Positions 4,285 to 25,091 of a stretch of DNA of 57,219 nucleotides are shown here, piece by piece. The position numbers and the translations under genes are program-made. How positions within the stretch are numbered: the first letter of the stretch is position 1; every line of letters begins with the position of its first letter. Under the pieces are notes generated by a model. The model saw nothing but the letters and a program-made list of their open reading frames with translations. It searched no databases and was not told the DNA's origin. Source of the stretch: an uncultured Elusimicrobiales bacterium (GTDB lineage: Bacteria > Elusimicrobiota > Elusimicrobia > Elusimicrobiales > Elusimicrobiaceae); NCBI GenBank assembly GCA_944324115.1, contig CALUVB010000017.1, forward strand, positions 1-57,219, given 5' to 3'.

Positions 4285-7080
4285 TTATTTGCGTTTCTTG
4301 GCCAAGGCCTCTTTGGCGGCAGCCTGAGCGGCAGCCAAGCGGGCTATGGGCACGCGGAACGGCGAGCAGGAGACGTAGTTGAACCCTTCGCGGTGGCAGA
4401 ATTCCACACTTTCGGGGTCGCCGCCGTGTTCGCCGCAGATACCGATTTTCAGGTTCGGTTTGGCGTCGCGTCCTTCGGCCACGGCGTGTTCAATCAGCAT
4501 CCCTACGCCGCGCTGGTCCAAGGTTTGGAACGGGTCGGCGTCCAAAATACCCTGTTTGAGGTATTCGGGCAGGAAAGCCCCGATGTCGTCGCGGGAGAAG
4601 CCAAACGTCATCTGCGTCAGGTCGTTGGTACCGAAAGAGAAGAAGTCCGCTTCCTGCGCCACTTCGTAAGCCAACACGGCCGCGCGCGGAATTTCAATCA
4701 TCGTACCGACGGAGAAGTTGAGCTTTTTCACTTTCGTTTTGGCTACCACTTCGTCGTAGACTTTGCGGATAATTTCTTTCTGTTTGATGATTTCGTTCAC
4801 GTCGCAGGTCAGCGGAATCATCACTTCGGGCACGGCTTTGACGCCTTCTTTAATCAGTTCGGCGGCCGCTTCAAAAATAGCGCGGGACTGCATTTGCGTA
4901 ATTTCCGGATAGGTCACCCCCAAGCGGATACCGCGGTGGCCCATCATCGGGTTCACTTCGTGCAGGCCGGCAGCGCGTTCCTGGAAGGTCTTCATATCAA
5001 TATCCAGCGCCTGAGCCAATTCGTGCTGTTTAGCCAGCAGGGTGGGAACAAATTCGTGCAAGGGGGGGTCCATCAGGCGGATCGTAACGCTGTAGGGCGC
5101 CATAGCCTTGATGGTTTCCTTGATATTCTTCTTCATATACGGGAAGAGTTCTTCCACCGCGGCCTTGCGTTCAATTTCGTTGCCGGCTAAAATCATCTTG
5201 CGCAGAATGAACAACGGTTCATCGGAATTTTTGCCGTAGAACATATGTTCAATGCGGAACAGGCCGATGCCTTCTGCCCCGAATTTGCGCGCATTGACGG
5301 CGTCTTCGGGCGTGTCGGCATTGGCGCGCACCTTCATCGTGCGGATAGAGTCGGCCAATTTCAGGAAAGCGGCCAAGTTTTTGTTGCCTTCGCCGGCTTC
5401 CAACATTTTCAGGGCGCCTTCATACACCCAGCCTTTGGTGCCGTTAAGGGTGAGGTGGTCGCCTTCTTTAAAGGTTTTGCCGCCCATTTTGACGGTCTTT
5501 TTGGCACTGTCCAATTCCAGTTCACTGCAGCCTACGATGCAGCATTTGCCCCAGCCGCGGGCCACCAAAGCCGCGTGGGAGGTCATACCGCCGCGCTGCG
5601 TCAAAATACCGGCTGCGGCACGCATACCTTCAATGTCTTCGGGGTTGGTTTCCTCGCGGATTAAAATGGCGTTTTCGCCTTTGGCTTGTAATTTGATGGC
5701 ATCTTCGGAGTTAAACACAATTTTGCCGCTGGCGCCGCCGGGGCCGGCAGGCAGACCCTGCGCAATGGGTTTGGCTTGCGCTTCGGCCTTGGGGTCAATG
5801 GCGGGCAGGAGCAGTTCGCCCAGCTGATGCGGGGTTACGCGCAGAACAGCCGTTTCTTTGTTAATCAGGCGTTCTTTAAGCATATCCAGCGCCATTTGCA
5901 CGGCAGCGGTGCCGTTGCGTTTGCCTACGCGGCACTGCAGCATCCACAGCGTGCCGTGTTCAATGGTAAACTCAATATCCAGCATATCGTGGAAATGTTT
6001 TTCCAGCCGTTTTTGAATATTGTCCAATTCCTTATACACTTTGGGCATCACTTTCTCCAGCGTGGGCAAGTGAGCAGAGTGCGCATTGGCAGACCATTTG
6101 TTCATCGGGGAGGGGGTGCGGATACCGGCCACCACGTCTTCGCCCTGGGCGTTGATTAAATATTCGCCGTAGAAATGGCTGTCGCCGTTGCCCGGGTTGC
6201 GGGTAAAGGCCACGCCGGTGGCGGAAGTGTCGCCCATGTTGCCAAACACCATGGTTTGCACGTTGACGGCGGTGCCCCAATCGTGCGGAATGTTTTCAAT
6301 GTTGCGGTAGGCGATGGCGCGTTTGCCGTTCCAAGAAGCAAACACCGCGCCAATGGCGCCCCAGAGCTGTTCGGTCGGGTCATCGGGAAATTCTTTGCCC
6401 AAAACTTTTTTGACCGTTTTCTTAAATTCAACGCACAGTTTTTTCAGTTCTTCAGCCGGAATGCCCGTATCGTCTTTGACGCCCAGCTTGGCTTTCACTT
6501 CGCCCATCATGCCGTCTAAGATTTTGCGGATACCTTCGCCGTCTTTGGGTTCAATGCCGGCGGCCTTTTCCATCACCACGTCGGAATACATCATAATCAA
6601 GCGGCGGTACGCGTCATATACAAAGCGTTCGTCGCCAGTTTTGGCAATCATGCCCGGAATGGTTTTTTCCGTCAAGCCAATGTTCAAAATTGTTTCCATC
6701 ATGCCCGGCATGGAAGCGCGCGCGCCGGAGCGTACGGACACCAAGAGGGGGTTTTTGTCAGAACCGAATTCTTTTTTAGTCAATTTTTCAACTTTTTTAA
6801 GGTTGGCTTCTACATCAGCTTTTAAGGTTTTAGGGTAAGTTCTTTTATTGTTCCAATAATGGGTGCAGACTTCGGTGGTAATTGTAAATCCCGGAGGAAC
6901 GGGCAGTTTTAGCTGGCCGGCCATTTCAGCCAAGTTGGCGCCTTTGCCGCCCAACAATTCTTTCATCTTGCCGTTTCCGTCGGCTTTTCCGCCGCCGAAA
7001 GCATATACCATTTTAACGGATTTCTTTGCCGCCGGTTTAACAGCTTTTTTGGCGGACTTTGTTACAGTTTTCTTTGCCAT
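4285..7080 (-). CDS. ppdK: Pyruvate, phosphate dikinase
   Basis: Interconverts pyruvate, ATP and phosphate with PEP, AMP and pyrophosphate. In anaerobes it often works in glycolysis, making extra ATP when pyrophosphate is supplied. The product is 931 residues, slightly longer than the usual ~880-900. In order: an N-terminal nucleotide-binding domain (GGGKADGNGKMKELLGGKGA), the swivelling phosphohistidine domain with GGMTSHAALVARGWGKCC, and the PEP/pyruvate barrel ending GICGEHGGDPESVEF. The extra length is partly a ~23-residue Lys/Ala-rich tail before MVYAFGGG, resembling that on the BCCP at 12375. A pyruvate kinase is also in this window (48297-49715), and a pyrophosphatase (27305-27883) would compete for pyrophosphate. 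Confidence 0.97.
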   Translation of the reverse strand: MAKKTVTKSAKKAVKPAAKKSVKMVYAFGGGKADGNGKMKELLGGKGANLAEMAGQLKLPVPPGFTITTEVCTHYWNNKRTYPKTLKADVEANLKKVEKLTKKEFGSDKNPLLVSVRSGARASMPGMMETILNIGLTEKTIPGMIAKTGDERFVYDAYRRLIMMYSDVVMEKAAGIEPKDGEGIRKILDGMMGEVKAKLGVKDDTGIPAEELKKLCVEFKKTVKKVLGKEFPDDPTEQLWGAIGAVFASWNGKRAIAYRNIENIPHDWGTAVNVQTMVFGNMGDTSATGVAFTRNPGNGDSHFYGEYLINAQGEDVVAGIRTPSPMNKWSANAHSAHLPTLEKVMPKVYKELDNIQKRLEKHFHDMLDIEFTIEHGTLWMLQCRVGKRNGTAAVQMALDMLKERLINKETAVLRVTPHQLGELLLPAIDPKAEAQAKPIAQGLPAGPGGASGKIVFNSEDAIKLQAKGENAILIREETNPEDIEGMRAAAGILTQRGGMTSHAALVARGWGKCCIVGCSELELDSAKKTVKMGGKTFKEGDHLTLNGTKGWVYEGALKMLEAGEGNKNLAAFLKLADSIRTMKVRANADTPEDAVNARKFGAEGIGLFRIEHMFYGKNSDEPLFILRKMILAGNEIERKAAVEELFPYMKKNIKETIKAMAPYSVTIRLMDPPLHEFVPTLLAKQHELAQALDIDMKTFQERAAGLHEVNPMMGHRGIRLGVTYPEITQMQSRAIFEAAAELIKEGVKAVPEVMIPLTCDVNEIIKQKEIIRKVYDEVVAKTKVKKLNFSVGTMIEIPRAAVLAYEVAQEADFFSFGTNDLTQMTFGFSRDDIGAFLPEYLKQGILDADPFQTLDQRGVGMLIEHAVAEGRDAKPNLKIGICGEHGGDPESVEFCHREGFNYVSCSPFRVPIARLAAAQAAAKEALAKKRK

Positions 7081-7158
7081 TTTCCATTTTTCTCCGTAAA
7101 GAATAGCGTGCGGGGCCTTACAACACCCCGTAAAACAGGTTTTGCACTTTCATATTGT

Positions 7159-7164
7159 ATTATA
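7159..7164 (-). promoter_or_regulatory. Putative -10 box of the ppdK promoter
   Basis: A perfect TATAAT lies on the minus strand about 80 bases upstream of the ppdK start. No good -35 box is visible at the right distance, so the call rests on the -10 hexamer and on this being the only AT-rich gap upstream of ppdK. Confidence 0.4.
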
Positions 7165-7223
7165 TTTCCTATTTAAAGGAAAGATTTTTTTTGAGGAGGG
7201 GAAAATGAATTTTGGAGAGGGTG

Positions 7224-7325
7224 GGTCCTAGGACCTAATTTGGGCTGGGTCTTTAGTTAAAGAAAAGAGGGTCTGCTCTTTGTAGTCCCGCTGGGTCCAA
7301 AAAATGCCTCTTTTTGGGTCCAACG
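7224..7325. other. Intergenic cluster of GGGTCC/GGGTCT words with a palindrome
   Basis: The stretch between ppdK and the next gene holds no coding sequence I can support. It has a perfect 12-base palindrome GGTCCTAGGACC (7224-7235) and several GGGTCC or GGGTCT words (near 7223, 7246, 7291, 7314). Two of them, CTGGGTCC and TTGGGTCC, flank a CCAAAAA/TTTTTGG inverted repeat. A related word cluster occurs at 13528-13556. It could be an operator array, a decayed repeat or chance; nothing here decides. Confidence 0.35.
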
Positions 7326-7337
7326 ACCCTGGTTGCT

Positions 7338-7366
7338 TTGCTCAGTAAAAGCTATTCTGTTATTAA
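7338..7366 (+). promoter_or_regulatory. Possible sigma70 promoter for the small protein at 7402
   Basis: TTGCTC (7338-7343) and TATTAA (7361-7366) are separated by 17 bases and lie about 35 bases upstream of the start codon. Both boxes are imperfect, so this is a weak prediction. Confidence 0.3.
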
Positions 7367-7401
7367 GAAAGCAAGAATGCATGGAAACAAAAGAGGCTGT
7401 T

Positions 7402-7578
7402 ATGACACAAAATACTATACTAATGACCCGCAAAGTACAACTAATGAAGAAACGCCGTTTGGAACGTGAAATCAGCTGGGTCAAACGTGAATTTAACGAT
7501 TTCAAAACCCTCAGTGATATTGAAATATATAATACAGAACGCTATGCCAGCTTGCATTTAGGCGTCAGTTTTATCTGA
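7402..7578 (+). CDS. Small basic protein of unknown function (58 aa)
   Basis: A 58-residue open frame with a basic, probably helical centre (MTRKVQLMKKRRLEREISW) and a C-terminal YASLHLGVSF. The frame is open upstream, but the ATG at 7402 is preferred because GAGG precedes it by a few bases. A strong terminator follows 31 bases after the stop and a plausible promoter lies upstream, so it looks like a self-contained transcription unit. I recognise no family. The alternative is that the real product is an RNA ending at the same terminator. Confidence 0.45.
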   Translation: MTQNTILMTRKVQLMKKRRLEREISWVKREFNDFKTLSDIEIYNTERYASLHLGVSFI

Positions 7579-7608
7579 TTTTTTTCATACCTCCTCCTAC
7601 AAAACCCT

Positions 7609-7652
7609 CACCCGCCGGGTTCATAACCCTCCCGGCGGGTGTTCCTTTTTTT
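7609..7652 (+). terminator. Intrinsic terminator after the 58-aa gene
   Basis: A perfect 11-bp GC-rich stem (7609-7619 with 7631-7641, CACCCGCCGGG pairing CCCGGCGGGTG) with an 11-base loop is followed by a run of eight T residues. Confidence 0.88.
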
Positions 7653-7947
7653 CAAGTGGCGCTATTCCGTTCATCTTTTGGGGGGGAGAAAGGGGCTTTG
7701 GAATGAATGTTTGCAGGTGTATAAACGTCTCTTGTGGCAATTTGCGCCCTCATTTCGCTTGGTTTGGTTGCGTCTGCTCAGATTCAGCGGCGGCAGAGGC
7801 GGGTGGATATCGTTTTTCTTACCCAGACTGGGGGGAAGGTGATGTAAATTTAGCTTGTGGCAGAGCGTTTTTCCCATATTTAGGCGATAGCAAATACCTT
7901 ACAGGGGAAAACGCGGCTGCGCCGTACAACTTTTTATACCGCTGTTT
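7653..7947. other. Intergenic stretch without a recognisable gene
   Basis: About 300 bases between the terminator at 7609-7652 and a predicted promoter. Short open frames exist on both strands but have no family resemblance, no convincing ribosome sites and unnatural composition (Pro/Arg-rich or Trp/Gly-rich). I looked for SRP RNA, tmRNA and RNase P core words and did not see them. Confidence 0.5.
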
Positions 7948-7976
7948 TTGCAAATCAACTTTTTGGAGAGGATAAT
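7948..7976 (+). promoter_or_regulatory. Predicted sigma70 promoter upstream of a short terminated transcript
   Basis: TTGCAA (7948-7953), a 17-base spacer and GATAAT (7971-7976). Transcription would start near 7983 and run straight into the strong terminator at 8002-8041, giving a ~60-nt RNA unless the terminator is read through into rpsO. Confidence 0.45.
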
Positions 7977-8001
7977 TTGCTATACTATATTACAAAGGAA
8001 G

Positions 8002-8041
8002 AAGGGCAAAGGGCAAAGTCATGCCCTTTGCCCTTTTTTTT
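8002..8041 (+). terminator. Strong hairpin terminator directly upstream of the rpsO promoter
   Basis: A perfect 14-bp stem (8002-8015 with 8022-8035) of the repeat type AAGGGCAAAGGGCA/TGCCCTTTGCCCTT, loop of six, followed by uninterrupted T residues to 8041. No coding gene ends here. It either ends a short RNA started near 7983 or acts as an attenuator before rpsO. Confidence 0.85.
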
Positions 8042-8043
8042 GC

Positions 8044-8163
8044 TATAATAAAGTGTACTCTGGTACAAAAAACTAAAAAGGAGAAGGTTGGACTCCGGCT
8101 CGGCGTCTCCTAAGGAGATGGAACGCTTGGTCGTTTCAGTTTTCAACCTAAGTGTAAAATAAA
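8044..8163 (+). promoter_or_regulatory. rpsO promoter -10 box and structured 5' leader
   Basis: A perfect TATAAT (8044-8049) follows the hairpin, predicting a start near 8056 and a leader of ~108 nt. The leader can fold: AGGTTG (8085-8090) pairs with CAACCT (8144-8149) and encloses a GAC/GTC-CCG/CGG hairpin and a perfect TCTCC-TAA-GGAGA hairpin (8106-8118). Ribosomal protein S15 represses its own mRNA through leader structures in several bacteria, so autoregulation is likely, but no described leader class was matched. No convincing -35 box was found. Confidence 0.45.
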
Positions 8164-8433
8164 ATGGTACTTTCCGTACAAGACAGAAAAGACATTATCG
8201 GTAAATTTCAGAGCAGCCCCAATGATACCGGCTCTGCCGCTGTGCAGATTGCTTTGATTACCGAACGCATCAGCTACATTTCCAATCACCTCAAAGCCAA
8301 CCCGAAAGACTTTGCCGGCGAACGCGGCCTGAACAAACTGGTCGGCCAGCGCAAACGCTTGCTCGCTTATTTGAAGAAATCCGATTTCGCCAAATACCAG
8401 CAAGTGACCAAAGAACTCAAATTGAGGAAATAG
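8164..8433 (+). CDS. rpsO: 30S ribosomal protein S15
   Basis: Primary 16S rRNA-binding protein of the small-subunit platform. The 89-residue product has the expected length and the family core: DTGSAAVQIALITERI at residues ~20-35, then SNHLKANPKDFAGERGLNKL and VGQRKRLLAYLKK. It is followed immediately by pnp with an overlapping stop/start region, the classical rpsO-pnp order. A structured leader precedes it. Confidence 0.98.
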   Translation: MVLSVQDRKDIIGKFQSSPNDTGSAAVQIALITERISYISNHLKANPKDFAGERGLNKLVGQRKRLLAYLKKSDFAKYQQVTKELKLRK

Positions 8434-8438
8434 TGTTC

Positions 8439-10550
8439 ATGGAAAATTTTAATCATAAGTTTGACATCCACTCTCTAGATGTGGAAGTCGGCGGTCAGAC
8501 GCTGAATTTGCAAACGGGTCTAATTGCCCGCCAGTCTGACGGCGCTGTCATGGTGACGTGGGGCGACACCAAGGTGCTTGCCACCGCTGTGTGCACCAAG
8601 GAACAAAAACCGGGCATTTCTGATTTTATGCCCTTGACCGTCAACTATAAAGAACGCACCTATGCCGCCGGCAAAATACCGGGCGGCTTTTTTAAGCGTG
8701 AAGGCCGCGCCAGCAAGAAAGAAACCCTTTCTTCTCGCATTATTGACCGCACCCTGCGCCCGATTTTCCCGGAAGGTTTCGCCTGCGAAACCAACGTAAC
8801 GGCGATGGTGCTTTCTTCCGATGATTTGCACGGCTCTGATGTCATCAGCGTGTTGGCCTCTTCGGCTGCGTTGGTAATTTCTTCTATTCCGTTTAACGAG
8901 CCTGTCGCCGCAGTGCGTATCGGCCGCATTAACGGGCAGTATATCGTCAACCCCACCAAACCCCAGGAAGCAGAATGCGATATGGACCTGGTTATTGCCG
9001 GTTCCGCGCAGGGGCTTTTGATGGTGGAAGGCGGCGCCAAAGAAGTGGAAGAAGAAGCCATTATCAAAGCCATGGAAGTGGCCAAGCCGGAAATTGACAA
9101 AATGTGCGCCGTACAGCTTAAATTGCGCGAGCTTTGCGGCAAGCCCAAATTTCCGTATGTAGTAGAAAAACTGCCGCAGGAAGTGGCAGATTTGGCTAAC
9201 GGCAAATTCCGCCAGGAAGCCCGCAACATTCTGCACGCTTTTTCTGACAAACAGACCCGCGACACCCAGGTAGCCCAGCTCAAAGCTTCTTTTACTGAAG
9301 AGCTGACTCCGACCTATGGTGATAATGCCGCCACCTATGCAGCCGTTGCGCTGGAAAACATCATGTATGAAGAATCCCGCAACATGGTGCTGCACGAAGG
9401 TGTGCGTGTTGACGGGCGCAAACCCGAAGAAATCCGCCCTTTGAGCTCCATGGTGGGGCTCTTGCCCCGCGCCCACGGCTCTGCCTTGTTTACGCGCGGG
9501 CAGACGCAGTCTTTGGCGGTTTGCACCTTGGGTACGCCTGATGATCAGCAAATGGTGGAAGGATTAGACGAAACCACCTACGAACGCTTTATGCTGCATT
9601 ACAATTTCCCGGGTTTTGCCACGGGCGAATGCAAACCGGACCGCAGCCCCGGCCGCCGCGAAATCGGCCACGGGGAATTGGCGCGCCGCGCTTTGATGCC
9701 CCTCTTGCCCAGCGAAGCGGAATTCCCTTACACGATTCGCGTAGTATCTGATATTATGGAATCCAACGGCTCTTCTTCTATGGCCAGCGTCTGCGGCGGC
9801 AGCTTGTCGCTTTTTGACGCGGGCGTGCCGATGAAAGCGGCCTGCTCCGGTATTGCCATGGGCGCCATTTCGGGCGAGGGCAAATTCGTCGTTCTGTCCG
9901 ATATTATGGGGCTGGAAGACCACTTGGGCGATATGGACTTTAAACTGACCGGTTCGCGCAAAGGTATTACGGCCTTCCAAATGGACGTAAAACTCAAAAC
10001 CGGCATTCCTCTGGACATTTTGCGCCAGGCCATCGCGCAAGCGACCCGCGGCCGCATGCACATTATGGACCATATGGAAAAAACTATTGCCGCGCCGAAA
10101 GAAAATGTGTCCCGCTTTGCCCCGGTTATTTTCAAGATGAAAATTGCCGTGGACAAGATTGGCGCGCTGATTGGCCCCGGCGGTAAAAATATTAAACGCA
10201 TTACCGAATCTACCGATACCAAGATTGATATTGAAGAAGACGGTACGGTGACTATTGCCGCCTCCAATGCAGACAAGCTGGACCAAGCCAAAGCCGAAAT
10301 TGAAATGATGACGGCGGAAGCCGAAGTGGGCAAAATATACAAAGGCAAAGTGGTGTCTATACAGCCCTTTGGCGCGTTTGTAGAGATTCTGCCCGGAAAA
10401 GACGGACTGCTTCACATTTCCGAGATTGAAAAACACCGCATCAACAAAGTGGAAGACGTATTGCACTTGGGTGACGTGGTGGAAGTCAAATGTGTGGAAA
10501 TTGACACCAACGGCAAAGTCCGCCTGTCCAGAAAAGTTCTGTTGAAATAG
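8439..10550 (+). CDS. pnp: Polyribonucleotide nucleotidyltransferase (PNPase)
   Basis: Phosphorolytic 3'-5' exoribonuclease of mRNA decay, usually a trimer. About 703 residues: first RNase PH domain (residues ~10-140), an alpha-helical linker domain, a second, catalytic RNase PH domain (~310-465), a KH domain with GPGGKNIKRITE near residue 560, and an S1 domain starting GKIYKGKVVSIQPFGAFVEI. The length is typical. A GTG at 8433 overlapping the rpsO stop is an alternative start with tighter spacing to the GAGG at 8424-8427; I chose the ATG at 8439 because MENFNHKF is a natural N-terminus. The gene ends 14 bases before a terminator. Confidence 0.97.
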   Translation: MENFNHKFDIHSLDVEVGGQTLNLQTGLIARQSDGAVMVTWGDTKVLATAVCTKEQKPGISDFMPLTVNYKERTYAAGKIPGGFFKREGRASKKETLSSRIIDRTLRPIFPEGFACETNVTAMVLSSDDLHGSDVISVLASSAALVISSIPFNEPVAAVRIGRINGQYIVNPTKPQEAECDMDLVIAGSAQGLLMVEGGAKEVEEEAIIKAMEVAKPEIDKMCAVQLKLRELCGKPKFPYVVEKLPQEVADLANGKFRQEARNILHAFSDKQTRDTQVAQLKASFTEELTPTYGDNAATYAAVALENIMYEESRNMVLHEGVRVDGRKPEEIRPLSSMVGLLPRAHGSALFTRGQTQSLAVCTLGTPDDQQMVEGLDETTYERFMLHYNFPGFATGECKPDRSPGRREIGHGELARRALMPLLPSEAEFPYTIRVVSDIMESNGSSSMASVCGGSLSLFDAGVPMKAACSGIAMGAISGEGKFVVLSDIMGLEDHLGDMDFKLTGSRKGITAFQMDVKLKTGIPLDILRQAIAQATRGRMHIMDHMEKTIAAPKENVSRFAPVIFKMKIAVDKIGALIGPGGKNIKRITESTDTKIDIEEDGTVTIAASNADKLDQAKAEIEMMTAEAEVGKIYKGKVVSIQPFGAFVEILPGKDGLLHISEIEKHRINKVEDVLHLGDVVEVKCVEIDTNGKVRLSRKVLLK

Positions 10551-10564
10551 TTTCAATGAACCTC

Positions 10565-10597
10565 AAAGCCCCGGGAGCTAACTTCCGGGGCTTTTTA
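10565..10597 (+). terminator. Intrinsic terminator of rpsO-pnp
   Basis: A 10-bp stem AAAGCCCCGG/CCGGGGCTTT (10565-10574 with 10585-10594) with a 10-base loop, running into T residues. Confidence 0.9.
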
Positions 10598-10652
10598 TAT
10601 TTGTAAAATCTTGAATAAAGCGGAACGCAAAATCAAACTTTTTCCAAAATGA

Positions 10653-10829
10653 AATACTTATTATGAAGGACATGTGCCGCCACAAAAGGCAGCCGTCGAA
10701 CGCACCACTCTCCCGGAGGCGCTGAAAATAAATATTAAAAAGGAGTTGAAAGAAAAAAAGATTATTTCCTCTGGCGGTTTTACGCAAACAACCATTTATG
10801 CCTCTTTTGCAAGAGAGCGCCTTTCTTGA
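10653..10829 (+). pseudogene. Possible gene remnant: orphan C-terminal reading frame
   Basis: A 58-codon frame running from just after an in-frame TGA to a TGA at 10827-10829. Its translation includes YYEGHVPPQKAAVERTTLPE and ends ISSGGFTQTTIYASFARERL. The balanced composition and alternating pattern look like the end of a real protein rather than random DNA. There is no good start codon (only GTG at 10674) and no ribosome site, so a 5'-truncated remnant is the simplest reading. It lies in the 270-base gap before the lipoprotein protease. No family recognised; low confidence. Confidence 0.3.
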
Positions 10830-10871
10830 GCGGGTGTCGTTTCCCAGTTTAAATAAGGTAAAATAAACAAT

Positions 10872-12257
10872 ATGAAAATTCCTTCTTTTTTTTCTTTTTC
10901 GCTGTTGATTTGCTGTGCTGTTGTATTGATGAGCGGCTGCACTTACCATGGAAAAATACACCGCAGTATTTACCAGAAGCCGGACTATGAAGAAAAAATT
11001 AATGCCCGCGTGATGGTGGTGGCAGATAAATTTTTTCCGCAAACGCTGACATTGGAAGGGGATTCTACATATCATTTCCGCCTTTCTGACGGATTTCCAA
11101 TAGCTGTGGCAGATGCACTGGGTACGCTTTTTACAGAGGTGGAAGTAAATGAATATAAATACCGCAAAAATTACGACTATATAGCAGAGCTTGATTATAA
11201 AGCCGCCCTGGGAGTCGGACCGGCGGAAGTGCACCTGCAACGTACTTTCTCCAGCCCGGTGGTGTTCCAACCTAAGCTGCGCACCTATTTGACAGTGACC
11301 ATGCGAAACCCTCATACCGGGTACGCCGTGGCCCGTTATACGGAAAGCGCTGAAATATTTCTTAATGACGCTTCCAACAGTTCCCTTTTATGGCTGACGG
11401 GTTTTTTGCGTCTTATCACATTGGGCCTGTTGACTCCGTTGGATATACAAGCTTATGGCGGATATATGCGGGGCCTGCTGGAAGACGGCATAGTTAAAAC
11501 GCTTTCGGAAGAAATCATGCCCCAAATGCAGGAAAACCGCGTCAATTTCACTCCGGATCATCTTACGGAACAAAGCAATGTCCGCATAGACGGCAAATTC
11601 ATTCCTTTTCTGAAAGCTACTGTTTATATATATACGGATAATTCCGTAGGCTCCGGCTTTTTGATTAGTCCAAACGGCTATATTGTTACAAACAGACATG
11701 TGGTGGGTACTGCCCGAGACGTATCTGTGGTCCTTTATGACCAACGCCAACTAATGGATAAAACAATCCCCAGCCAAACAGCCGACCCCAAAGCCACCAA
11801 CAACAAAGTTCGCTTTGCCAAAGTGCTAAAAATCAATAAAGCCCGGGATTTGGCTTTGCTGAAAATGGAAGGGGAAAACCTGCCTTATTTGGAACTGGAA
11901 ACAGACCGCTCCGCTTATACTACCGGGCAGGAAGTTGTGGCGTTGGGCGCCCCCAGAGGGGTGGAATGGAGCGTCAGCCGCGGTATTTTAAGCGCCGCCC
12001 GCGATAATAACGGAGTGGATACTTTGCAGACCGATGCTGCTGTAAATAACGGCAACAGTGGCGGTCCTCTCATCAGCCTGCAAACCGGCCGCGTCATAGG
12101 GGTAAACAGCTGGGGGATACAGCCTTCCTCCGATATAGATGATTTGCGTCATGGAGTAGAAAATCTTAATTTTGCTATTTCTGCCTTTGAAGTGGAACGC
12201 ACGCTGGGCGTTACACAGCCGGTAAATCCCGACGATTTTTTGCTCCCGGCGGATTAA
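10872..12257 (+). CDS. Lipoprotein with a C-terminal trypsin-like (HtrA-type) serine protease domain
   Basis: A 461-residue envelope protein. It begins with a lipoprotein signal ending in LMSGC (lipidated Cys near residue 24). Residues ~25-245 form an unassigned region with no recognised family. The trypsin-like domain follows: catalytic His276 in VTNRHVVG, Asp326 in ARDLALLKM and Ser396 in NNGNSGGPLI, in the spacing of S1C (DegP/HtrA) proteases. No PDZ domain follows, unlike DegP, DegQ or DegS. It is probably anchored in the inner or outer membrane and cleaves periplasmic proteins; the substrate is unknown. The N-terminal half with a lipobox is the unusual part. Confidence 0.88.
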   Translation: MKIPSFFSFSLLICCAVVLMSGCTYHGKIHRSIYQKPDYEEKINARVMVVADKFFPQTLTLEGDSTYHFRLSDGFPIAVADALGTLFTEVEVNEYKYRKNYDYIAELDYKAALGVGPAEVHLQRTFSSPVVFQPKLRTYLTVTMRNPHTGYAVARYTESAEIFLNDASNSSLLWLTGFLRLITLGLLTPLDIQAYGGYMRGLLEDGIVKTLSEEIMPQMQENRVNFTPDHLTEQSNVRIDGKFIPFLKATVYIYTDNSVGSGFLISPNGYIVTNRHVVGTARDVSVVLYDQRQLMDKTIPSQTADPKATNNKVRFAKVLKINKARDLALLKMEGENLPYLELETDRSAYTTGQEVVALGAPRGVEWSVSRGILSAARDNNGVDTLQTDAAVNNGNSGGPLISLQTGRVIGVNSWGIQPSSDIDDLRHGVENLNFAISAFEVERTLGVTQPVNPDDFLLPAD

Positions 12258-12374
12258 AAAGATTTTGCGGAAGCCTTTTTGGCGCACCAAAGAGGCTAAA
12301 ATTATGTAAAATATTAAAAAGATTGTTCGCGGGCCGATACCGGCCCAGACTATGTGCAAGAGGGCATTTTCTTT

Positions 12375-12878
12375 ATGAAAAAAACAGTCAAGAAAGCCGC
12401 ACCTAAAAAAGCCGTTGCCAAAAAAACGGCCATGAAAGAATCCCCCATTTTGAAAGAAGTTAAACAGCTCTATTCTTTCATGCAAGATAATTCTATTGAT
12501 ACTATTGAGTACGACCAAAATGGTCTGTATTTGCGTTTGGTAAAAGCCAAACCTGCTATGGTACCCGTACCGGTAAATGTAGGGGCCGCCGCCTCTGCAG
12601 GTCCGGCGGCAGCCGCTGCCCCGGTGCAGGAACAATATAAAGAAGTGATAAAATCCCCCTTGATGGGCATTTTCTTCCGTGGTTCCACGCCGTCTGCTCC
12701 TCCGTTTGTAAAAGAGGGCGCCCAAGTGAAAAAAGGCGACGTTATTTGTCTCATTGAAGCCATGAAAGTATTTAATGAAGTCCGCGCCGATTTTAACTGC
12801 ATCGTGCAAAAGGTGTTGGTAGAAAATGGCAAGCCCATTAAACAGGGCGATGCGTTGTTTGCCATTGAACGGGTGTAA
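12375..12878 (+). CDS. accB: Biotin carboxyl carrier protein of acetyl-CoA carboxylase
   Basis: Carries CO2 on biotin for malonyl-CoA synthesis in fatty-acid synthesis. 167 residues from the ATG at 12375; a GTG at 12354 is in frame but less likely. Order: a Lys/Ala-rich tail (residues 1-24), a helical N-terminal part, an Ala/Pro-rich linker (VGAAASAGPAAAAAPVQ), then the biotinyl domain with EAMKVFNEV, in which Lys131 is the biotinylation site 36 residues from the end, as usual. The basic tail is not typical of BCCPs and resembles that of PPDK here. AccC, the usual partner, is not in this window; a small winged-helix gene follows instead. Confidence 0.94.
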   Translation: MKKTVKKAAPKKAVAKKTAMKESPILKEVKQLYSFMQDNSIDTIEYDQNGLYLRLVKAKPAMVPVPVNVGAAASAGPAAAAAPVQEQYKEVIKSPLMGIFFRGSTPSAPPFVKEGAQVKKGDVICLIEAMKVFNEVRADFNCIVQKVLVENGKPIKQGDALFAIERV

Positions 12879-12881
12879 TAT

Positions 12882-13118
12882 ATGACGCCGCTACAAGAAA
12901 GTATTCAAGCCGCTTGCGACCGTATGATGGAGTATTTGCAGGATAAAAAACAAGCTACTTCTTGGCAGTTAAAGTTGGCTTTACATTTATCCAGCTCTAT
13001 GGTGTATTTGGCTTTGGGCGTTTTGCATGAACAAGGCAAGATTTGTTTAGATGCAGATGATATTAATTATAAAGTATCCCTGCCTGCGCCGGAAGTAAAT
13101 ACGCCTCAGACGTTTTAG
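12882..13118 (+). CDS. Small winged-helix protein (DUF2582-like)
   Basis: 78 residues starting three bases after the accB stop, so probably co-transcribed. The sequence fits a single winged-helix fold: ATSWQLKLALHLSSSMVYLA as helix-turn-helix, then LGVLHEQGKICLDADDINYK as the wing. It resembles PF10771 (DUF2582) winged-helix proteins, found in many anaerobes; that match is from memory of the pattern. It has no sensor domain. It could be a DNA-binding regulator, possibly of lipid synthesis given its position, but its target is unknown. Confidence 0.65.
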   Translation: MTPLQESIQAACDRMMEYLQDKKQATSWQLKLALHLSSSMVYLALGVLHEQGKICLDADDINYKVSLPAPEVNTPQTF

Positions 13119-13124
13119 TTTTTC

Positions 13125-13148
13125 AGCCTCCGCAAGGGGGCTTTTTTA
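13125..13148 (+). terminator. Intrinsic terminator after accB and the winged-helix gene
   Basis: A 7-bp stem AGCCTCC/GGGGGCT (one G-U pair) with a GCAA tetraloop (13125-13142), followed by six T residues. Confidence 0.85.
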
Positions 13149-13537
13149 TAGATATATTGGAGCCGCCAGTTGTTTTTGCTCCGTTGTCTTTTTGCAAAGG
13201 CTTTTTGGGAAACCGCCAAGATCCATCCGCGGCAACCATGTGTTTTCTCAGTCTTGGCGCAAGACCCGTCAGCGCTAAATGTGCCGGTTTCCTATCTTTT
13301 TCGGGCTAGATTCCCCGGCACTGGAATATTTCCAATAAACGCAATAAAACTGGCACGGACACCGTCTCAAAAGTAGTTTTGAAGAGATGACCTGTTTCCC
13401 CTCAGACACCGCCGCGTGCGCTGTCTTAAAAGCAATTTCCCCGCCGTGTTCAGGCCAAGCGCAGACAGTGCTGACAATGATTATACAAGGGGGGGGGAAC
13501 CCGCCGGATTATTCTGAAGGAAAATGCTGGGTCTTCT
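13149..13537. other. Intergenic stretch without a recognisable gene
   Basis: About 390 bases before the next hairpin. Two short open frames (13170-13376 and 13387-13602) have no ribosome site and no familiar sequence. A run of nine G residues near 13490 and another CTGGGTCT word near 13528 are the only noticeable elements. Confidence 0.45.
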
Positions 13538-13603: not shown

Positions 13604-16075
13604 ATGAAAATGAGATTTTTGACGTCTTTTTTATCCGTCTGTCTGTTGTTTCAACAACTGCCATTATATGCTTTTTCCGGAGATTATACCCCCCGGAGCC
13701 ATTCTGCGGCCGGAGTGTCTGAACCGGCTAAGACAGATTATTTGGGACGGCAAAATGTGCGCCGCCAGGAATTTGCCAAGGCTTCTCTGCCTCTTTACAA
13801 AGCGGCTGGTTTGCAGCAAGAAATGGAAAAAGCGTTAAAAAAGGGCGATGCTGCGACCTTTTATGTCACTTTAATCCAATTAAACGAATTATTGTTTTCT
13901 CAGCTTTCTGAGCCTTTTTTGCCGGTACGTCTCCAAGCGCTTGAGTTGCTGGCAAGTCATGTCAAAGAAGGCTTTGTTACAGACGAAGAAAAGAAAGAGT
14001 TGGCTTTCCGCTTGGAAAAGCTGCTCCGCTCCACCAAAAAATGCCAAGGGGATTTCTGTCGGTTCGTGGGGGTGGCTGCTTTAACTTTGGCCTTGACTGC
14101 CCAAACCCCGCAGCCTGAGGCAATCGCTATATCTTCGGAACTGGCGCTTCCTTCGCAACGTCAGCGGATTTTGGCCCTTTACGCTCACTTGTTGGCGCAT
14201 GATTATGGGTCTGACGAAGCCAATCAAACAGTCTCAGAATATGTATTGCGCGCCAACGCGTGGCTGGGGGGATTGGAAATTGCACAAGCGCAGATTGACC
14301 AGTTAGTTTCCCAATCTGGCGCAGGCGGATATACCTACGACGCCAAAAACTATAAATTACAACGTTTCGCCGTTGAGTTGCTTTCTGCTTTTGGGACAGA
14401 ATCTATTGTCCCGCTTAAAAAATTAGCCCAGCAATCCCCCAGTTTAACCGTACGGACCCATGCCGCCATAGAACTGGCCTATAAAAAACTTCCGTTCCAA
14501 GAAATGCAGCAGGTGCGCCAGCAATTGGAATATATCTATTGCGACATAAAATTACGCCTGCCGCATCAGCTGGATTTTGAGCTGCGCCAACAAATCGGCT
14601 ATGCCTATGGAGAAGGCCGCAAGCCCCAATACATTACCGATGGACAGCCGCGTTGTCTAGTAGTCGTTCCAACGGCTCCTAACCCACATTTAATTTTAGA
14701 TGAATGGGTGTTAAAAGCCGGCAAAGAAGCAGTCCTGTGGTTTGCGCCAGTAGGAATAATGAAGGCTGCCGGCACTGCTTGGAAAACCTTGGCCCATTTA
14801 AAAACGCTGCGTGCCTATGTAAATACTCACCACGGCATGAGCTTGCGCCAATTCTATGAATCGGGCCGCCGTCTGCCCATAATGGGTTTGAAATCAGACT
14901 TGGTTTCTTCTCTCAGCACTGTACAAAAAGCGCAAAGAACAACTTCTTTAACTGAACCCGTCTTAGCCCAAGCCTCACCAGCCCGAAAAGTCTCCAAGGT
15001 AGACCCGGAAATCCAAAAAATACGCAATATGTTTTTGACTGAAACCCGGGAGATGGTGTCCTCTACTAGAGCCCGGAGCAATTTGACCCCCATACAAGAG
15101 GCCCATGTGGAACGGTTGGCAACAAGAGTAGAAGAAAATGCTTCTTCTTCCTATGCGTTGGGCCAAGTAAAACGGGAGTTGATGGCTCTTCCTTCCCAGC
15201 AAAACAATGCTTTTGTGGTTTTTGGCAGTCGTATGGAAAAAATCGGGTCCGATGTATTAGATGAAACAAGCCATTCTTTTATGACGGACTACGTCGGGTG
15301 GAGATATCGGGGCTCCAAAAATATTTTAGGCACCACTAGAGCACATTTAAAATATAAACTGCAGCAATATGGTCCTACCAGCGATGAGCTGCTTTTGCGT
15401 TGGGATACCCATGGCGGAGTGGACAATTTTTACCGCTGGCAGGGGGAACTGAATTCAAATTCTCTTATTTCCATGCCGGAAATTATCCGTATCGTGTTGG
15501 ATAATTTAAGGGGGGTGTCCCATAAAAGCATTACTATTTTCCTGGACAGCTGCTATCCGGGGGCCGCTTTTAAAGACTTTATGTCTTTGCCCCTTGAAAT
15601 GAGAAAAAACTTCAATTTATTTGCTTTGGGCGGACATATGCAACTCAATTTTGTGCGTTATTTGCCCCGCTGGATGAGAAGCTACCTGCATACTCCGTTA
15701 GATTATGCCACTTACATATGGAAATATGGCGACAATATCAATACATTGACCGGACAGGCTTATGTAAGGGGACAGATTATCAATCCGCTGGGGCAGGCTA
15801 TCAAAAATACACGTTATCTGCGTCCCACTATGTCTAGAGAATTGCAAAGACTGCAGCAAGTGGCGCTTGCCGATAATCCTTATTCCCTGTACCAAGCTAT
15901 TAACCGCTTTGTAGACGAAGTTCCCGGTGTTGCATTAAAAAACATGCAGTGGCCTATGCCCTATTATGTAATTCCTTATAATCAAACTGCTCCGCTGAAA
16001 GAAATAAATCAGCTGCTGATTCCTAATCGTTTGTTAGAAGAAATCCAGGGTGAAATATCCAAAATTTCCTTCTAA
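13604..16075 (+). CDS. Exported protein with HEAT-like helical repeats and a caspase-like (clan CD) cysteine peptidase domain
   Basis: An 823-residue protein with a Sec signal peptide (cleavage probably after LPLYAFSG). Residues ~60-330 are helix-rich and resemble HEAT-type repeats (for example LPVRLQALELLASHVKEGFV and LTVRTHAAIELAYKKLPFQE). The C-terminal part (~550-720) resembles a clan CD peptidase: His603 in RWDTHGGVDN ends one strand, and Cys650 in IFLDSCYPGAAF lies 47 residues later. The DSC-x-x-G context and H-C spacing are those of caspases and metacaspases. The peptidase call is an inference from these motifs; substrate and biological role are unknown. It is followed by its own terminator. 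Confidence 0.7.
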   Translation: MKMRFLTSFLSVCLLFQQLPLYAFSGDYTPRSHSAAGVSEPAKTDYLGRQNVRRQEFAKASLPLYKAAGLQQEMEKALKKGDAATFYVTLIQLNELLFSQLSEPFLPVRLQALELLASHVKEGFVTDEEKKELAFRLEKLLRSTKKCQGDFCRFVGVAALTLALTAQTPQPEAIAISSELALPSQRQRILALYAHLLAHDYGSDEANQTVSEYVLRANAWLGGLEIAQAQIDQLVSQSGAGGYTYDAKNYKLQRFAVELLSAFGTESIVPLKKLAQQSPSLTVRTHAAIELAYKKLPFQEMQQVRQQLEYIYCDIKLRLPHQLDFELRQQIGYAYGEGRKPQYITDGQPRCLVVVPTAPNPHLILDEWVLKAGKEAVLWFAPVGIMKAAGTAWKTLAHLKTLRAYVNTHHGMSLRQFYESGRRLPIMGLKSDLVSSLSTVQKAQRTTSLTEPVLAQASPARKVSKVDPEIQKIRNMFLTETREMVSSTRARSNLTPIQEAHVERLATRVEENASSSYALGQVKRELMALPSQQNNAFVVFGSRMEKIGSDVLDETSHSFMTDYVGWRYRGSKNILGTTRAHLKYKLQQYGPTSDELLLRWDTHGGVDNFYRWQGELNSNSLISMPEIIRIVLDNLRGVSHKSITIFLDSCYPGAAFKDFMSLPLEMRKNFNLFALGGHMQLNFVRYLPRWMRSYLHTPLDYATYIWKYGDNINTLTGQAYVRGQIINPLGQAIKNTRYLRPTMSRELQRLQQVALADNPYSLYQAINRFVDEVPGVALKNMQWPMPYYVIPYNQTAPLKEINQLLIPNRLLEEIQGEISKISF

Positions 16076-16090: not shown

Positions 16091-16131
16091 GCCGCCTCTG
16101 TCTGCTATAGGGCAGAGGCGGCTTTATTTTT
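16091..16131 (+). terminator. Intrinsic terminator of the caspase-like gene
   Basis: A 10-bp stem GCCGCCTCTG/CAGAGGCGGC (16091-16100 with 16113-16122), followed by a T-rich run. Confidence 0.88.
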
Positions 16132-16204
16132 CATAAATCGCCGGCAAATTTCGTCTGGCAGCCCCGCTATATTTTGCTGTACAAAATTGCTAAAATATAC
16201 ACAT

Positions 16205-18520
16205 ATGGAAAAGTATTATTACGCGCGTAAGAAATCAAAGAAAAAAACAAAACAAGTTTCTTCTGTCCGTTGGCTGGCTTCCGCCTTGTATATTTTGGGT
16301 TTTGCATTGACCGCGTGGCTTTTTGCCATGTTGTGGTTCGGCTTTTCCCAAGGAAGCGTGAGCGAGTCTTCTTGCCGCATTCTCAAACAGTTGTTTGGGC
16401 AGAGTGCTTCTTTAATTCCTCTTTTATTGACTTATTGGCTGGTGCGCAGTTTGATTAAAAAAAGCGGCGCTTTTGTCTTTTTCTTATTTGGCGCATTACT
16501 CACGCTGACGGCTTTTTCATCTGTGCTTACGATGTTAAAGCTGATCTTTACCGGATCACAGATTACAGGCGGTTTGGCGGGGCAGAAACTGTTTTATTGG
16601 TTTGAAGGCATTGTGGGGCCGGTGGGGGCTTCTTTATTCTCATTGGCTTTATTCTTGGTCGGGTTGCATATTTTATTTGCAATACCATGGCAAGTGGTGG
16701 TAAGCAAATCCATTGAATTTATGAGAGAAGATTTCCAGGGGTGGATGCAGGCCCGGGCCGAATTAAAAGAAAAAGTAAAAGAAGGCAAAGAAGAAGTTAA
16801 ACGGGAAGCTGCTCATGCAGCAGTGCAGTCTGCAGACGAAGAGCAAGATACAGAGCTACGCCCGGCCAAACCTAAAATTTACCGCCCGCACACCCAAATT
16901 AAAGCTCCCGTGGCGGAAATGGTCAAGGAGCTGCCCCGTTCAGCCGTGGCGCAGCCCGTCAACAAACAAGAAATAGCAGATGATGAAGAAAAACAGCAGC
17001 AGACCCAGCCTTTTAATCCGGCTACATTTCAGCTGCCTTCTTTAGAGCTGCTGGCAGATCCTGTTAATAACGGCGTTGTGGGGCCGACTGATGAGGAAAT
17101 CGCCCAAGCCACTAAACGTCTGGAAGAAACGTTGAAAAACTTTGAAATTGGAGCCCATGTAACGGGGGTATCCCCCGGCCCGGTGGTGACTCGGTATGAA
17201 ATTAAGCCCGATCCTGGTGTTAAAATAGCCTCTATCGTATCTATTTCCAATGATATTGCGTTGGCAATGAAAGCAAAATCTATCCGTGTAGAGGCGCCTA
17301 TTCCGGGGAAAGACGCCATTGGCTTTGAAATTCCCAATGACCGCCCTGTTATGGTTACCATGAAGGAAATTCTGCAGGATCCCGTTTATACTCAGTCCAA
17401 AGCGCGCATACCGGTGGCTTTGGGCCGTTTTGCAGATGGCCGGCCCGCAGGCGCCACGCTGGAAAAATGGCCTCATATCCTAATAGCCGGCGCTACCAAC
17501 AGCGGAAAATCAATCTGTTTGCATACCATTATTATGTCTGTTTTGTACCATGCCAAACCCAATGAGGTCAAATTCCTTATGATTGACCCCAAACGGCTGG
17601 AGCTGACGCTTTATGAAGGGATTCCGCACTTATATGACCCCAAAACCTCTTGCGATAACGTAAATGTGGTAACTGACGCACAAGGGGCGGTGAAGTCGTT
17701 GCAAATGCTGGTAAAAGTAATGGAAAAACGCCTTAAAATCATGGAATTGGCCAAAGTAAAGAATATTGAAGGATATAATGCTTGGGCAGAAAAGAAAGGC
17801 GAAGAAAAAATGTTTTATATTGTGGTCATTATTGATGAAATGGCCGACCTTATGCTGCAAACCCGCGCTGCAATTGAAGATTCCGTACAACGGTTGGCGC
17901 AAATGGCGCGCGCTGTAGGGATTCACTTAATTTTATGTACCCAGCGCCCTTCTGTCAACGTAATCACGGGCGTAATTAAAGCCAACTTGCCCTCCCGTAT
18001 AGCGCTGCAAGTGGCCAGCAAGACGGACTCGCGGGTAATTTTAGACGGAGCCGGAGCGGAGCTGCTGTTGGGCAGGGGGGATATGCTCTACCAAGGAACT
18101 TCTGACCAAAAACCGCACCGTATCCAAGGCGCCTATGTCAGCGAAAACGAAATTACGGCCGTGGCTGACTTCTTGCGCAGCCAAGGCGCGCCGGATTACC
18201 CGGTGCAAATCATGGCCGACCATAGTATGCAGCGGCCGCAAGACGGGTTGGGGACCTCTCCGGAAGAACTGTTGCAGGCGCTGAAATTGGTGACGGAAAG
18301 GAAACGCGTCTCCCAGGATTTGCTTAAAGCACACTTTGGTTCTTCTGCCCGCGCCACCAATATTTTGAGCGTGTTGGAGATGAAAGGCTTTATTACCAAG
18401 CCGGAAGGCTCTAACCGCTGGGAAATACATTATGATTTAATTGAAGAACAAATAAACGCTTTGGAAAACAGAGATACGGATAAATATCGGGAACCAGAAT
18501 ATGAAACGGTCTATAAATAG
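16205..18520 (+). CDS. ftsK: DNA translocase FtsK/SpoIIIE
   Basis: Septum-anchored ATPase that pumps chromosome ends during division and activates dimer resolution. 771 residues from the ATG at 16205; a TTG six codons upstream is also in frame. Four membrane helices lie in residues ~25-175, then a charged Glu/Lys/Gln linker, then the motor: Walker A GATNSGKS at residues 429-436, Walker B VVIIDEMADLML, and a C-terminal gamma domain (EELLQALKLVTERKRVSQDL and ATNILSVLEMKGFI) for polar-sequence recognition. The linker is short compared with E. coli FtsK. It overlaps lolA by 20 bases, so the two are translationally linked. Confidence 0.96.
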   Translation: MEKYYYARKKSKKKTKQVSSVRWLASALYILGFALTAWLFAMLWFGFSQGSVSESSCRILKQLFGQSASLIPLLLTYWLVRSLIKKSGAFVFFLFGALLTLTAFSSVLTMLKLIFTGSQITGGLAGQKLFYWFEGIVGPVGASLFSLALFLVGLHILFAIPWQVVVSKSIEFMREDFQGWMQARAELKEKVKEGKEEVKREAAHAAVQSADEEQDTELRPAKPKIYRPHTQIKAPVAEMVKELPRSAVAQPVNKQEIADDEEKQQQTQPFNPATFQLPSLELLADPVNNGVVGPTDEEIAQATKRLEETLKNFEIGAHVTGVSPGPVVTRYEIKPDPGVKIASIVSISNDIALAMKAKSIRVEAPIPGKDAIGFEIPNDRPVMVTMKEILQDPVYTQSKARIPVALGRFADGRPAGATLEKWPHILIAGATNSGKSICLHTIIMSVLYHAKPNEVKFLMIDPKRLELTLYEGIPHLYDPKTSCDNVNVVTDAQGAVKSLQMLVKVMEKRLKIMELAKVKNIEGYNAWAEKKGEEKMFYIVVIIDEMADLMLQTRAAIEDSVQRLAQMARAVGIHLILCTQRPSVNVITGVIKANLPSRIALQVASKTDSRVILDGAGAELLLGRGDMLYQGTSDQKPHRIQGAYVSENEITAVADFLRSQGAPDYPVQIMADHSMQRPQDGLGTSPEELLQALKLVTERKRVSQDLLKAHFGSSARATNILSVLEMKGFITKPEGSNRWEIHYDLIEEQINALENRDTDKYREPEYETVYK

Positions 18521-24069: not shown

Positions 24070-24834
24070 ATGCCCACCGAGAAAGAAAAAGCCGAGGTGG
24101 AAAGTATGCAATCTCAAACGGCGGCGCAGTATGTAGCGGCTGGTATTTTAAGCCCCGAAGAAGTACGCAAAGCTTTACGTTCCGAACGAGGCGGCAGATT
24201 TGCCGATATAGACGAGGGACTACCCGCCGAAGAAATCCCCGAGGACTTGGAACTGCCGGAAGATGAGCCGACCCTTGACGAATGGGAAGAAAGCAAGCAC
24301 CCCCGCAAAGACAACGGACAATTTGGGCCGGGAATAGGCGGAAAGGAAACAAAAGAAGGGAAAGAAACAATAAAAACAAATGTTTGGGAAGACGAAACAA
24401 AAAAGAAAGAAGCAGAGGCCCTTCTAGAAAAGGAGAGCACACAAAAAAATATTGATGATGTCCCCTCTGTCAGTTACAGAGAAGTGGGAGAAAAAGAAGC
24501 TGATAGATTAAACTCTGCTATCGGATTAGACCTAACGGGATTTGTTCACCAGTTAACAGCTGGAGGCATTCGGCACATTTTTAAATCACACGACGATGAA
24601 CAAACCGAGAAAGCCCGAGGGCAATTACCTGTAACAAAAGAAGATATTTTGCTCATTCCTCTTATTACGGGCGATTTTGACAAGGTGGCTCTGGCAAAAG
24701 AAAAATCAGAGGGGCGTAGTGTACTGATTTATAGCAAAAAGATAGGCAATATGTATTTTTATTACGAAACAGTTGGGGGCGGTAAAAATAAAACTTTGCA
24801 ACCTAAAACAATGTACAAACGAAAAGCAAAGTGA
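24070..24834 (+). pseudogene. Phage portal protein C-terminus fused to a PBECR-type nuclease domain (5' truncated)
   Basis: 254 residues from the first ATG; the same frame is open further upstream with portal-like sequence (ITKFNPIDMPTEKEKAE), so the beginning of the gene is missing. Residues 1-90 match the C-terminal tail of DUF1073-type portals (QYVAAGILSPEEVRKALRSE). A charged linker (HPRKDNGQFGPGIGG) leads to a C-terminal domain with FVHQLTAGGIRHIFKSHDDE, ARGQLPVTKEDILLIPLITG and TMYKRKAK. This is the pattern of phage-borne Barnase/EndoU/ColicinE5/RelE-like nuclease (PBECR) domains; His residues near 164 and 168 could be catalytic. Family calls are from recognition, not a search. Confidence 0.65.
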
Positions 24835-24938
24835 ACGGATTTGATGACTGGTATCCAGTCCCCGGTATCCCTAACGCCCGCAGCGATTCACTTTGCTTAT
24901 TAATAGTATAGCGCAAAAACAGAGATTTTTCAAGTGGT

Positions 24939-25091
24939 ATGAAAAAGAAAAGCAATTTTATTCTAGGAAAGCCATTAATCCCAAACGCAGGGGTGCGTTC
25001 TTGGTACACCAAAGAGCTGGACTCACTAGTTAAAAAAATGGATGAGCGGACACGTTTAAACTCGTTCCTTTGGTGGATAATCACACAATGA
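24939..25091 (+). pseudogene. Phage minor head protein, N-terminal fragment
   Basis: A 50-codon frame beginning KKKSNFILGKPLIPNAGVRS, then [15 protein letters not shown]. This is the typical start of SPP1 gp7/Mu gpF-like minor head proteins (GKPL-x-PNA, W/Y, then a helix with repeated Leu). After about residue 40 the frame leaves the family and stops at 25091. The sequence there continues, in another frame, as a DUF2213 protein, so a deletion fused the two genes. Confidence 0.6.

What the first reader, a model, noticed from the sequence alone, without database searches (positions are those of the whole stretch)
13604..16075. Exported protein joining HEAT-like repeats to a caspase-like peptidase domain
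A signal peptide, helical repeats and a C-terminal His603/Cys650 pair in caspase/metacaspase contexts (DTHGG; LDSCYPG) occur in one 823-residue protein with its own terminator. Secreted clan CD peptidases are known (gingipain, clostripain), but this domain combination looks unfamiliar. It could act in envelope quality control, host interaction or interbacterial conflict.
Basis: partly seen in the sequence, partly recalled or inferred. Interest (0 to 1): 0.62.

Follow-up and report, generated by a model that had tools for sequence, protein, structure and literature searches.

The report
Exported caspase-like protease with swappable tail
A gut bacterium of the Elusimicrobiaceae carries an exported protein whose tail is a very divergent caspase/legumain-type protease; it belongs to a fast-changing family, known so far only from this lineage, in which similar front halves carry different, probably enzymatic, tails, so it looks like a tool used against something outside the cell rather than a housekeeping enzyme.

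Summary
Window 13604-16075 encodes an 823-residue exported protein with its own terminator. Its C-terminal domain is caspase-like: residues 532-724 of the predicted structure superpose on caspase-6, legumain and the GPI-transamidase peptidase (Z about 12), and in 25 divergent homologues the only four invariant columns are His603, Gly604, Cys650 and Gly653. It is not a member of C14 or C13 by curated cut-offs; sequence profiles lean to both. The helical N-terminal half is solenoid-like, carries two invariant cysteine pairs, and is shared by Elusimicrobiaceae proteins with unrelated tails. In one pair (G210/G212) the first ~650 residues are 36-86% identical per 50-residue block, then the tail switches from the caspase-like domain to an unrelated, HExxH-containing one. 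P0001 sits in a variable slot between accB-orf78 and ftsK that is empty, or holds other genes, in 38 of 38 further syntenic relatives, and its dN is about 5-14 times that of ftsK, accB and pgsA. No immunity gene follows. Best reading: a lineage-specific family of Sec-exported modular effectors; this copy is a cysteine-peptidase effector aimed outside the cytoplasm. Catalysis, substrate and target are untested. New variant of a known kind.

The parts
13604..16075 (+). 823-aa exported protein (P0001)
   Evidence: ORF; orthologues 59-63% identical in three genomes and on contig C12
13604..13672 (+). Sec-type signal peptide, residues 1-23 (approximate cleavage after LYA)
   Evidence: sequence; shared by family members with complete N-termini
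13742..14818 (+). conserved N-terminal module, residues 47-405, HEAT/ARM-like alpha-solenoid; invariant Cys147/152 and Cys313/351 (likely disulfides)
   Evidence: profile A4, phylum search, model helices 46-336, fold matches
14714..14848 (+). moderately hydrophobic then basic linker, residues 371-415, low model confidence
   Evidence: alignment A4, hydropathy of relatives, pLDDT
15197..15775 (+). caspase-like (clan CD) cysteine-peptidase core, residues 532-724; ordered C-terminal extension to 823
   Evidence: model pLDDT mostly above 85; VIA Z 11-12 to caspases, legumains, GPI transamidase; profile matches
15410..15412 (+). predicted catalytic His603 (followed by invariant Gly604)
   Evidence: invariant in 25 sequences; aligns with the HG motif of legumain
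15551..15553 (+). predicted catalytic Cys650 (followed by invariant Gly653)
   Evidence: invariant in 25 sequences; aligns with the catalytic Cys of legumain and of C14 caspases
16091..16132 (+). intrinsic terminator of the gene
12354..13118 (+). left border of the variable slot: accB and a 78-aa ORF, followed by a terminator-like hairpin at 13125
16187..18520 (+). right border of the variable slot: ftsK-like gene (then lolA, pgsA)

Best explanation
P0001 is one member of an Elusimicrobiaceae-specific family of Sec-exported modular effectors. Shown by computation: (a) a caspase-like C-terminal domain with an invariant His-Gly/Cys-x-x-Gly signature; (b) a solenoid-like N-terminal module with two invariant cysteine pairs, shared by proteins with unrelated tails; (c) C-terminal domain exchange between close relatives; (d) residence in a variable chromosomal slot, patchy presence and fast divergence. 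Inferred: the signal peptide sends it out of the cytoplasm; the N-module folds with two disulfides and serves as a recognition or targeting scaffold; His603 and Cys650 form a cysteine-protease dyad that cleaves proteins outside the producer's cytoplasm. Because no immunity gene accompanies it, the most likely targets are non-kin (host, dietary or protist proteins, or other bacteria) rather than sibling cells.
For: Fold: Foldseek probability 0.99-1.00 to metacaspase 9, GPI-transamidase K, caspase-6 and legumain; VIA Z 12.2 to caspase-6 over 165 residues at 3.5 A, Z 12.1 to asparaginyl endopeptidase over 180, Z 12.0 to GPI-T K over 176. Catalytic signature invariant. Profile searches: legumains and GPI transamidase top the PDB list with motifs aligned, E 0.017-0.09; hhalign against C14 domains of the same phylum 93-94% probability, negative control 0.1%. 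Modular tails: the N-module is present in 15 of 341 genomes of the phylum, all in one family, and its tails fall into eight BLAST groups. Tail swap L103/L137: 36-86% identity per 50-residue block to residue ~650, then 12-24%. Slot: 23 empty and 15 with other genes among 38 syntenic relatives, none with the family; the window species, G222, G036, G188 and G139 have it. dN 0.28 against 0.05 for ftsK, 0.03 for accB and 0.02 for pgsA; dN/dS 0.10-0.20 in a close pair, so the genes are maintained. Secretins present in all 13 genomes tested.
Against: No biochemical data. No curated peptidase family is matched above its cut-off. No immunity gene or dedicated secretion gene lies next to it, and T6SS VipB is absent from the own genome and 12 relatives. 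Passage across the outer membrane is not shown. The other tails have no recognised catalytic family. The solenoid assignment is weak.
Confidence: 0.55

Rival explanations
1. Secreted or surface protease for host or diet proteins (gingipain/clostripain-like role): the peptidase digests or modifies gut proteins, and the solenoid binds the substrate or the cell surface.
For: Export, clan CD fold, no immunity gene, gut-associated genus.
Against: Domain swapping with unrelated tails at a conserved N-module is not typical of nutritional proteases.
Confidence: 0.3
2. True interbacterial polymorphic toxin with the caspase-like domain as the C-terminal toxin (the Tox-Caspase type of Zhang et al. 2012, PMC3482391).
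For: Signal peptide, conserved N-half, exchangeable C-terminal domain, terminal position of the peptidase, variable slot; a T6SS putative cysteine-protease effector, Tce1, is among the fold matches (row 37; PMC13323088).
Against: No downstream immunity gene: the stop codon is followed by a terminator and ftsK, and no small conserved gene follows the other members.
Confidence: 0.2
3. Transpeptidase or sorting enzyme: the C13-like domain joins or anchors exported proteins (as GPI transamidase or PorU do).
For: Closest profile and fold matches include GPI-transamidase K and asparaginyl ligases.
Against: No shared C-terminal sorting signal noticed; patchy accessory distribution argues against a general sorting role.
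Confidence: 0.1
4. Envelope quality-control or housekeeping protease of the producer.
For: Exported; purifying selection in a close pair; flanked by core genes.
Against: Present in only 17 of 66 genomes of the genus, junction empty or otherwise filled in 38 of 38 other relatives, much faster change than neighbours.
Confidence: 0.07

Closest known systems
Family C13 legumain / asparaginyl endopeptidase / GPI-transamidase K (PF01650)
   Same: Caspase-type fold, HG and Cys-x-x-Gly motifs, extracytoplasmic; best sequence-profile match
   Different: Below the Pfam cut-off; no recognised legumain prodomain; fused to an N-terminal helical module; the residue after Cys varies (Y/F/H/L/C)
Family C14 metacaspases of Elusimicrobiota (PF00656)
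   Same: hhalign 93-94% probability with the catalytic motifs aligned; the A2 profile weakly reaches C14 protein G083:C260
   Different: P0001 itself does not match PF00656; the genomes with C14 proteins are mostly other families of the phylum
C-terminal caspase-like domains of polymorphic toxins (Zhang et al. 2012, PMC3482391)
   Same: Sec export, conserved N-part, variable C-terminal domain, peptidase as last domain
   Different: No immunity gene; N-terminal module not found in the libraries searched; distribution limited to Elusimicrobiaceae in this search
Solenoid plus caspase-like proteases: Csx29 (TPR-CHAT), cyanobacterial HEAT-metacaspase (PMC3501461)
   Same: Alpha-solenoid joined to a caspase-like domain; Foldseek pairs the whole model with TPR-CHAT
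   Different: Csx29 acts inside the cell with a CRISPR effector; whole-chain TM-score is only 0.12-0.14
Gingipains (C25) and clostripain (C11)
   Same: Secreted bacterial clan CD peptidases
   Different: No sequence match; not among the listed fold matches (not excluded)

Membership tests
Clan CD cysteine peptidases | Caspase-type alpha/beta fold | tested here: met
   Predicted model 532-724 matches caspases, legumains, GPI-T at Z 11-12, rmsd 3.1-4.0
Clan CD cysteine peptidases | Catalytic His (HG) and Cys at the ends of two strands, conserved | tested here: met
   H603, G604, C650, G653 invariant in 25 sequences; strands 595-601 and 642-648
Clan CD cysteine peptidases | Thiol-dependent proteolysis | not testable with these tools
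   needs purified protein
Peptidase C13 (legumain) | Pfam PF01650 above its cut-off | tested here: not met
   P0001 no match; 7 of 15 relatives match weakly, best E 0.0015
Peptidase C14 (caspase/metacaspase) | Pfam PF00656 above its cut-off | tested here: not met
   No match in P0001 or the own genome; only profile-profile similarity
Gingipain C25 / clostripain C11 | Sequence or fold match | tested here: inconclusive
   No Pfam match; fold comparison does not exclude them
HEAT repeat proteins | HEAT profile above cut-off | tested here: not met
   HEAT_2 15.8 bits, cut-off 27.7
HEAT repeat proteins | HEAT/ARM-type superhelix | tested here: inconclusive
   Z about 12, rmsd 6-7 A, within the range of non-specific helical matches
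Polymorphic toxin systems | Shared N-terminal part with exchanged C-terminal domains | tested here: met
   L103/L137 and L103/L136 comparisons; tail groups
Polymorphic toxin systems | Adjacent immunity gene | tested here: not met
   Terminator then ftsK after P0001; no consistent small downstream gene in other members
Polymorphic toxin systems | Toxicity of the C-terminal domain | not testable with these tools
   needs expression assay

The most novel reading that the evidence does not exclude
Elusimicrobiaceae possess a lineage-specific, immunity-free polymorphic effector system: an exported, disulfide-stabilised solenoid scaffold onto which different enzymatic domains, including a new clan CD peptidase family near C13, are swapped, used against hosts, protists or unrelated competitors in the gut.
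Probability: 0.25. Interest if true: 0.72.

Novelty: new variant of a known kind. Interest (0 to 1): 0.5.

Why it matters
If right, it adds an apparently undescribed clan CD peptidase family in a little-studied gut phylum and gives a handle on how Elusimicrobiaceae act on their surroundings: one variable locus (accB-orf78 | ftsK) and one N-module profile would let effector repertoires be listed genome by genome and tested.

Tried and rejected
Artefact: the '24,491-aa open frame' around the G019 homologue is a run of masked N. In-genome paralogy: the two C12 copies looked like paralogues, but C12 carries second copies of pnp, accB and ppdK and is 97-100% identical to G036, so the bin is probably mixed from two species. 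Pfam Sheath_initiator hit on 689-726: below cut-off, not repeated in relatives. ADP-ribosyltransferase reading of the L133-L135 tails: no support from PDB profile or Pfam. Phage or plasmid cargo: no tblastn match in phages or plasmids, no PHROG. Anti-phage defence: no PADLOC match. T6SS cargo: no VipB in 13 genomes. C25/C11 assignment: not among the rows shown, not excluded.

Full report
What is there. The finding is a complete 823-codon gene at 13604-16075 (+). It begins with a Sec-type signal peptide and ends 16 bp before a strong intrinsic terminator. The window is contig C17 of a 1.53-Mb genome. Named relatives of the protein come from uncultured Elusimicrobiales genomes and from Candidatus Avelusimicrobium excrementipullorum, phylum Elusimicrobiota, family Elusimicrobiaceae. 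The organism of the window is therefore placed by kinship, not by name.

The peptidase domain. Sequence alone gives little: P0001 has no Pfam, NCBIfam, PHROG or PADLOC match above threshold. Whole-genome searches found homologues in 17 of 66 genomes of the genus, and a domain profile extended this to 21 of 66 in the genus and, weakly, to a few proteins elsewhere in the phylum. Aligning 15 and then 25 of these domains left exactly four invariant columns, His603, Gly604, Cys650 and Gly653. The profile's best matches among solved structures are legumains and a GPI transamidase, E 0.017 to 0.09, with HG on HG and Cys-x-x-Gly on the catalytic Cys motif. The only Pfam family hit repeatedly by members is Peptidase_C13, always below its cut-off. 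Profile-profile comparison with bona fide C14 caspases of the same phylum gives 93-94% probability with the catalytic motifs aligned; the N-terminal module as a negative control gives 0.1%. The AlphaFold2 model is confident over most of 534-823. Foldseek finds metacaspase, GPI-transamidase, caspase-6 and legumain. The structural aligner places residues 532-724 on caspase-6 (Z 12.2, 165 residues, 3.5 A), asparaginyl endopeptidase (12.1, 180, 3.6 A), GPI-T K (12.0, 176, 3.6 A) and chain C of an mTORC1 complex (7uxc_C, 12.3, 165, 3.1 A; from general knowledge Raptor, which has a caspase-like domain). C13 and C14A share the same topology (PMC4357240), so these matches do not decide between them. 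I conclude that the domain belongs to clan CD but to no curated family that was tested.

The N-terminal half. Residues 47-405 form a module with its own profile (A4). Four cysteines are invariant, 147/152 and 313/351, which fits an oxidising, extracytoplasmic location. The model shows successive helices and matches HEAT/ARM and adaptin-like proteins, but at scores that helical proteins often reach by chance, so 'HEAT-like' stays probable rather than shown. A hydrophobic then basic stretch follows (371-415) with low model confidence.

A family with exchangeable tails. In 341 genomes of the phylum the N-module occurs in 15, all from one family. Of 20 N-module proteins compared by their tails, the C13-like tail is one of eight groups joined by BLAST. 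The group that holds the C13-like tails also holds L137, which joins it only through a shared linker. L103 (C13-like tail) and L137 (different tail with HENYH) are 36-86% identical per 50-residue block up to residue about 650 and at background after it; L103 and L136 part at about residue 480. This abrupt change is what C-terminal domain replacement leaves behind. The tails other than the C13-like one have no recognised family, so 'enzymatic' is inference for them.

A variable slot. The gene lies between accB plus a 78-codon ORF and ftsK-lolA-pgsA. The same slot holds the orthologue in G222, two tandem members in G036, an 837-codon member plus a 1120-codon exported protein in G188, and a 1095-codon member in G139. 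In 38 further syntenic genomes of the genus the junction is empty (84-480 bp, 23 genomes) or holds other genes (0.7-2.2 kb, 15 genomes), and no slot ORF matches either profile. Between the window and G222 the slot protein is 63% identical with dN 0.28, while ftsK has 0.05, accB 0.03 and pgsA 0.02; dS of the slot gene is near saturation, so only dN is compared. In the very close C12/G036 pair dN/dS is 0.10 and 0.20, so the genes are kept.

How it probably works. Export, disulfides, a solenoid scaffold, an invariant dyad, exchange of tails and an accessory variable locus together suggest an effector released from, or displayed by, the cell, in which the N-half sets location or binding and the tail acts chemically. 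The tail here most likely cleaves proteins. The lack of an immunity gene argues against sibling competition and for non-kin targets. Secretins are present in the own genome and all 12 relatives tested and T6SS is not detected, so a secretin-based route is possible but unshown. Specificity cannot be read from the sequence.

Relation to known systems. Zhang et al. 2012 described caspase-like domains as the last domain of polymorphic toxins, exported among others by the Sec route (PMC3482391). The present family works like these in layout but lacks the immunity partner, so it is not filed as a polymorphic toxin. A 2012 survey found no metacaspase in Elusimicrobia (PMC3501461); many C14 proteins are seen in the phylum here. 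Solenoid plus caspase-like layouts are known inside cells (Csx29, HEAT-metacaspase), not, to my knowledge, as an exported family with exchangeable tails.

Limits. Structure prediction closed before the domain-only job. Model coordinates could not be inspected, so the dyad geometry is inferred from strand positions. The genome bin seems to mix two species. The organism is known only from metagenome assemblies.

Noticed in passing
G000:C12 (L030) versus window 4285-13118: Contig C12 carries second copies of ppdK, pnp, accB and neighbours, 97-100% identical to genome G036: the genome bin probably mixes two Avelusimicrobium species.
   Followed up: partly
L089:5949-12404 (G000:C3), L037, L096, L099, L104: Related exported proteins of 1500-2160 aa carry one or two caspase-like domains; several end in what looks by eye like a receiver (response-regulator) domain, odd behind a signal peptide. 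Pfam finds it only in the related L032 protein (Response_reg E 6e-4).
   Followed up: partly
L032:3618-6980: 1120-aa exported protein with a weak C-terminal receiver domain match, directly downstream of a family member in the same slot in G188.
   Followed up: partly
window 24070-25690: Phage remnant: portal-protein tail with a PBECR3 nuclease domain (PF18812, 7.5e-21) and a head-maturation-protease fragment (DUF2213, PHROG 3778).
   Followed up: partly
window 13489-13497: Run of nine G about 107 bp upstream of P0001, the only G/C run of 8 or more in the window; a possible phase-variable promoter tract, absent from the G222 and G036 loci; about 0.2 such runs expected from base composition.
   Followed up: partly
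window 10872-12257: Lipoprotein with a trypsin-like domain (PF13365, 7e-29) in the same neighbourhood; its counterparts diverge strongly across the genus (24-85% identity).
   Followed up: no
window 53980-57219: ORF of at least 1079 codons on the minus strand, transporter-like multi-membrane protein running off the contig end.
   Followed up: no
L194, L195, L197, L215 (region upstream of accB): Arrays of 250-500-codon proteins with signal-peptide-like starts on the opposite strand near the same locus in other species, another variable cluster.
   Followed up: no
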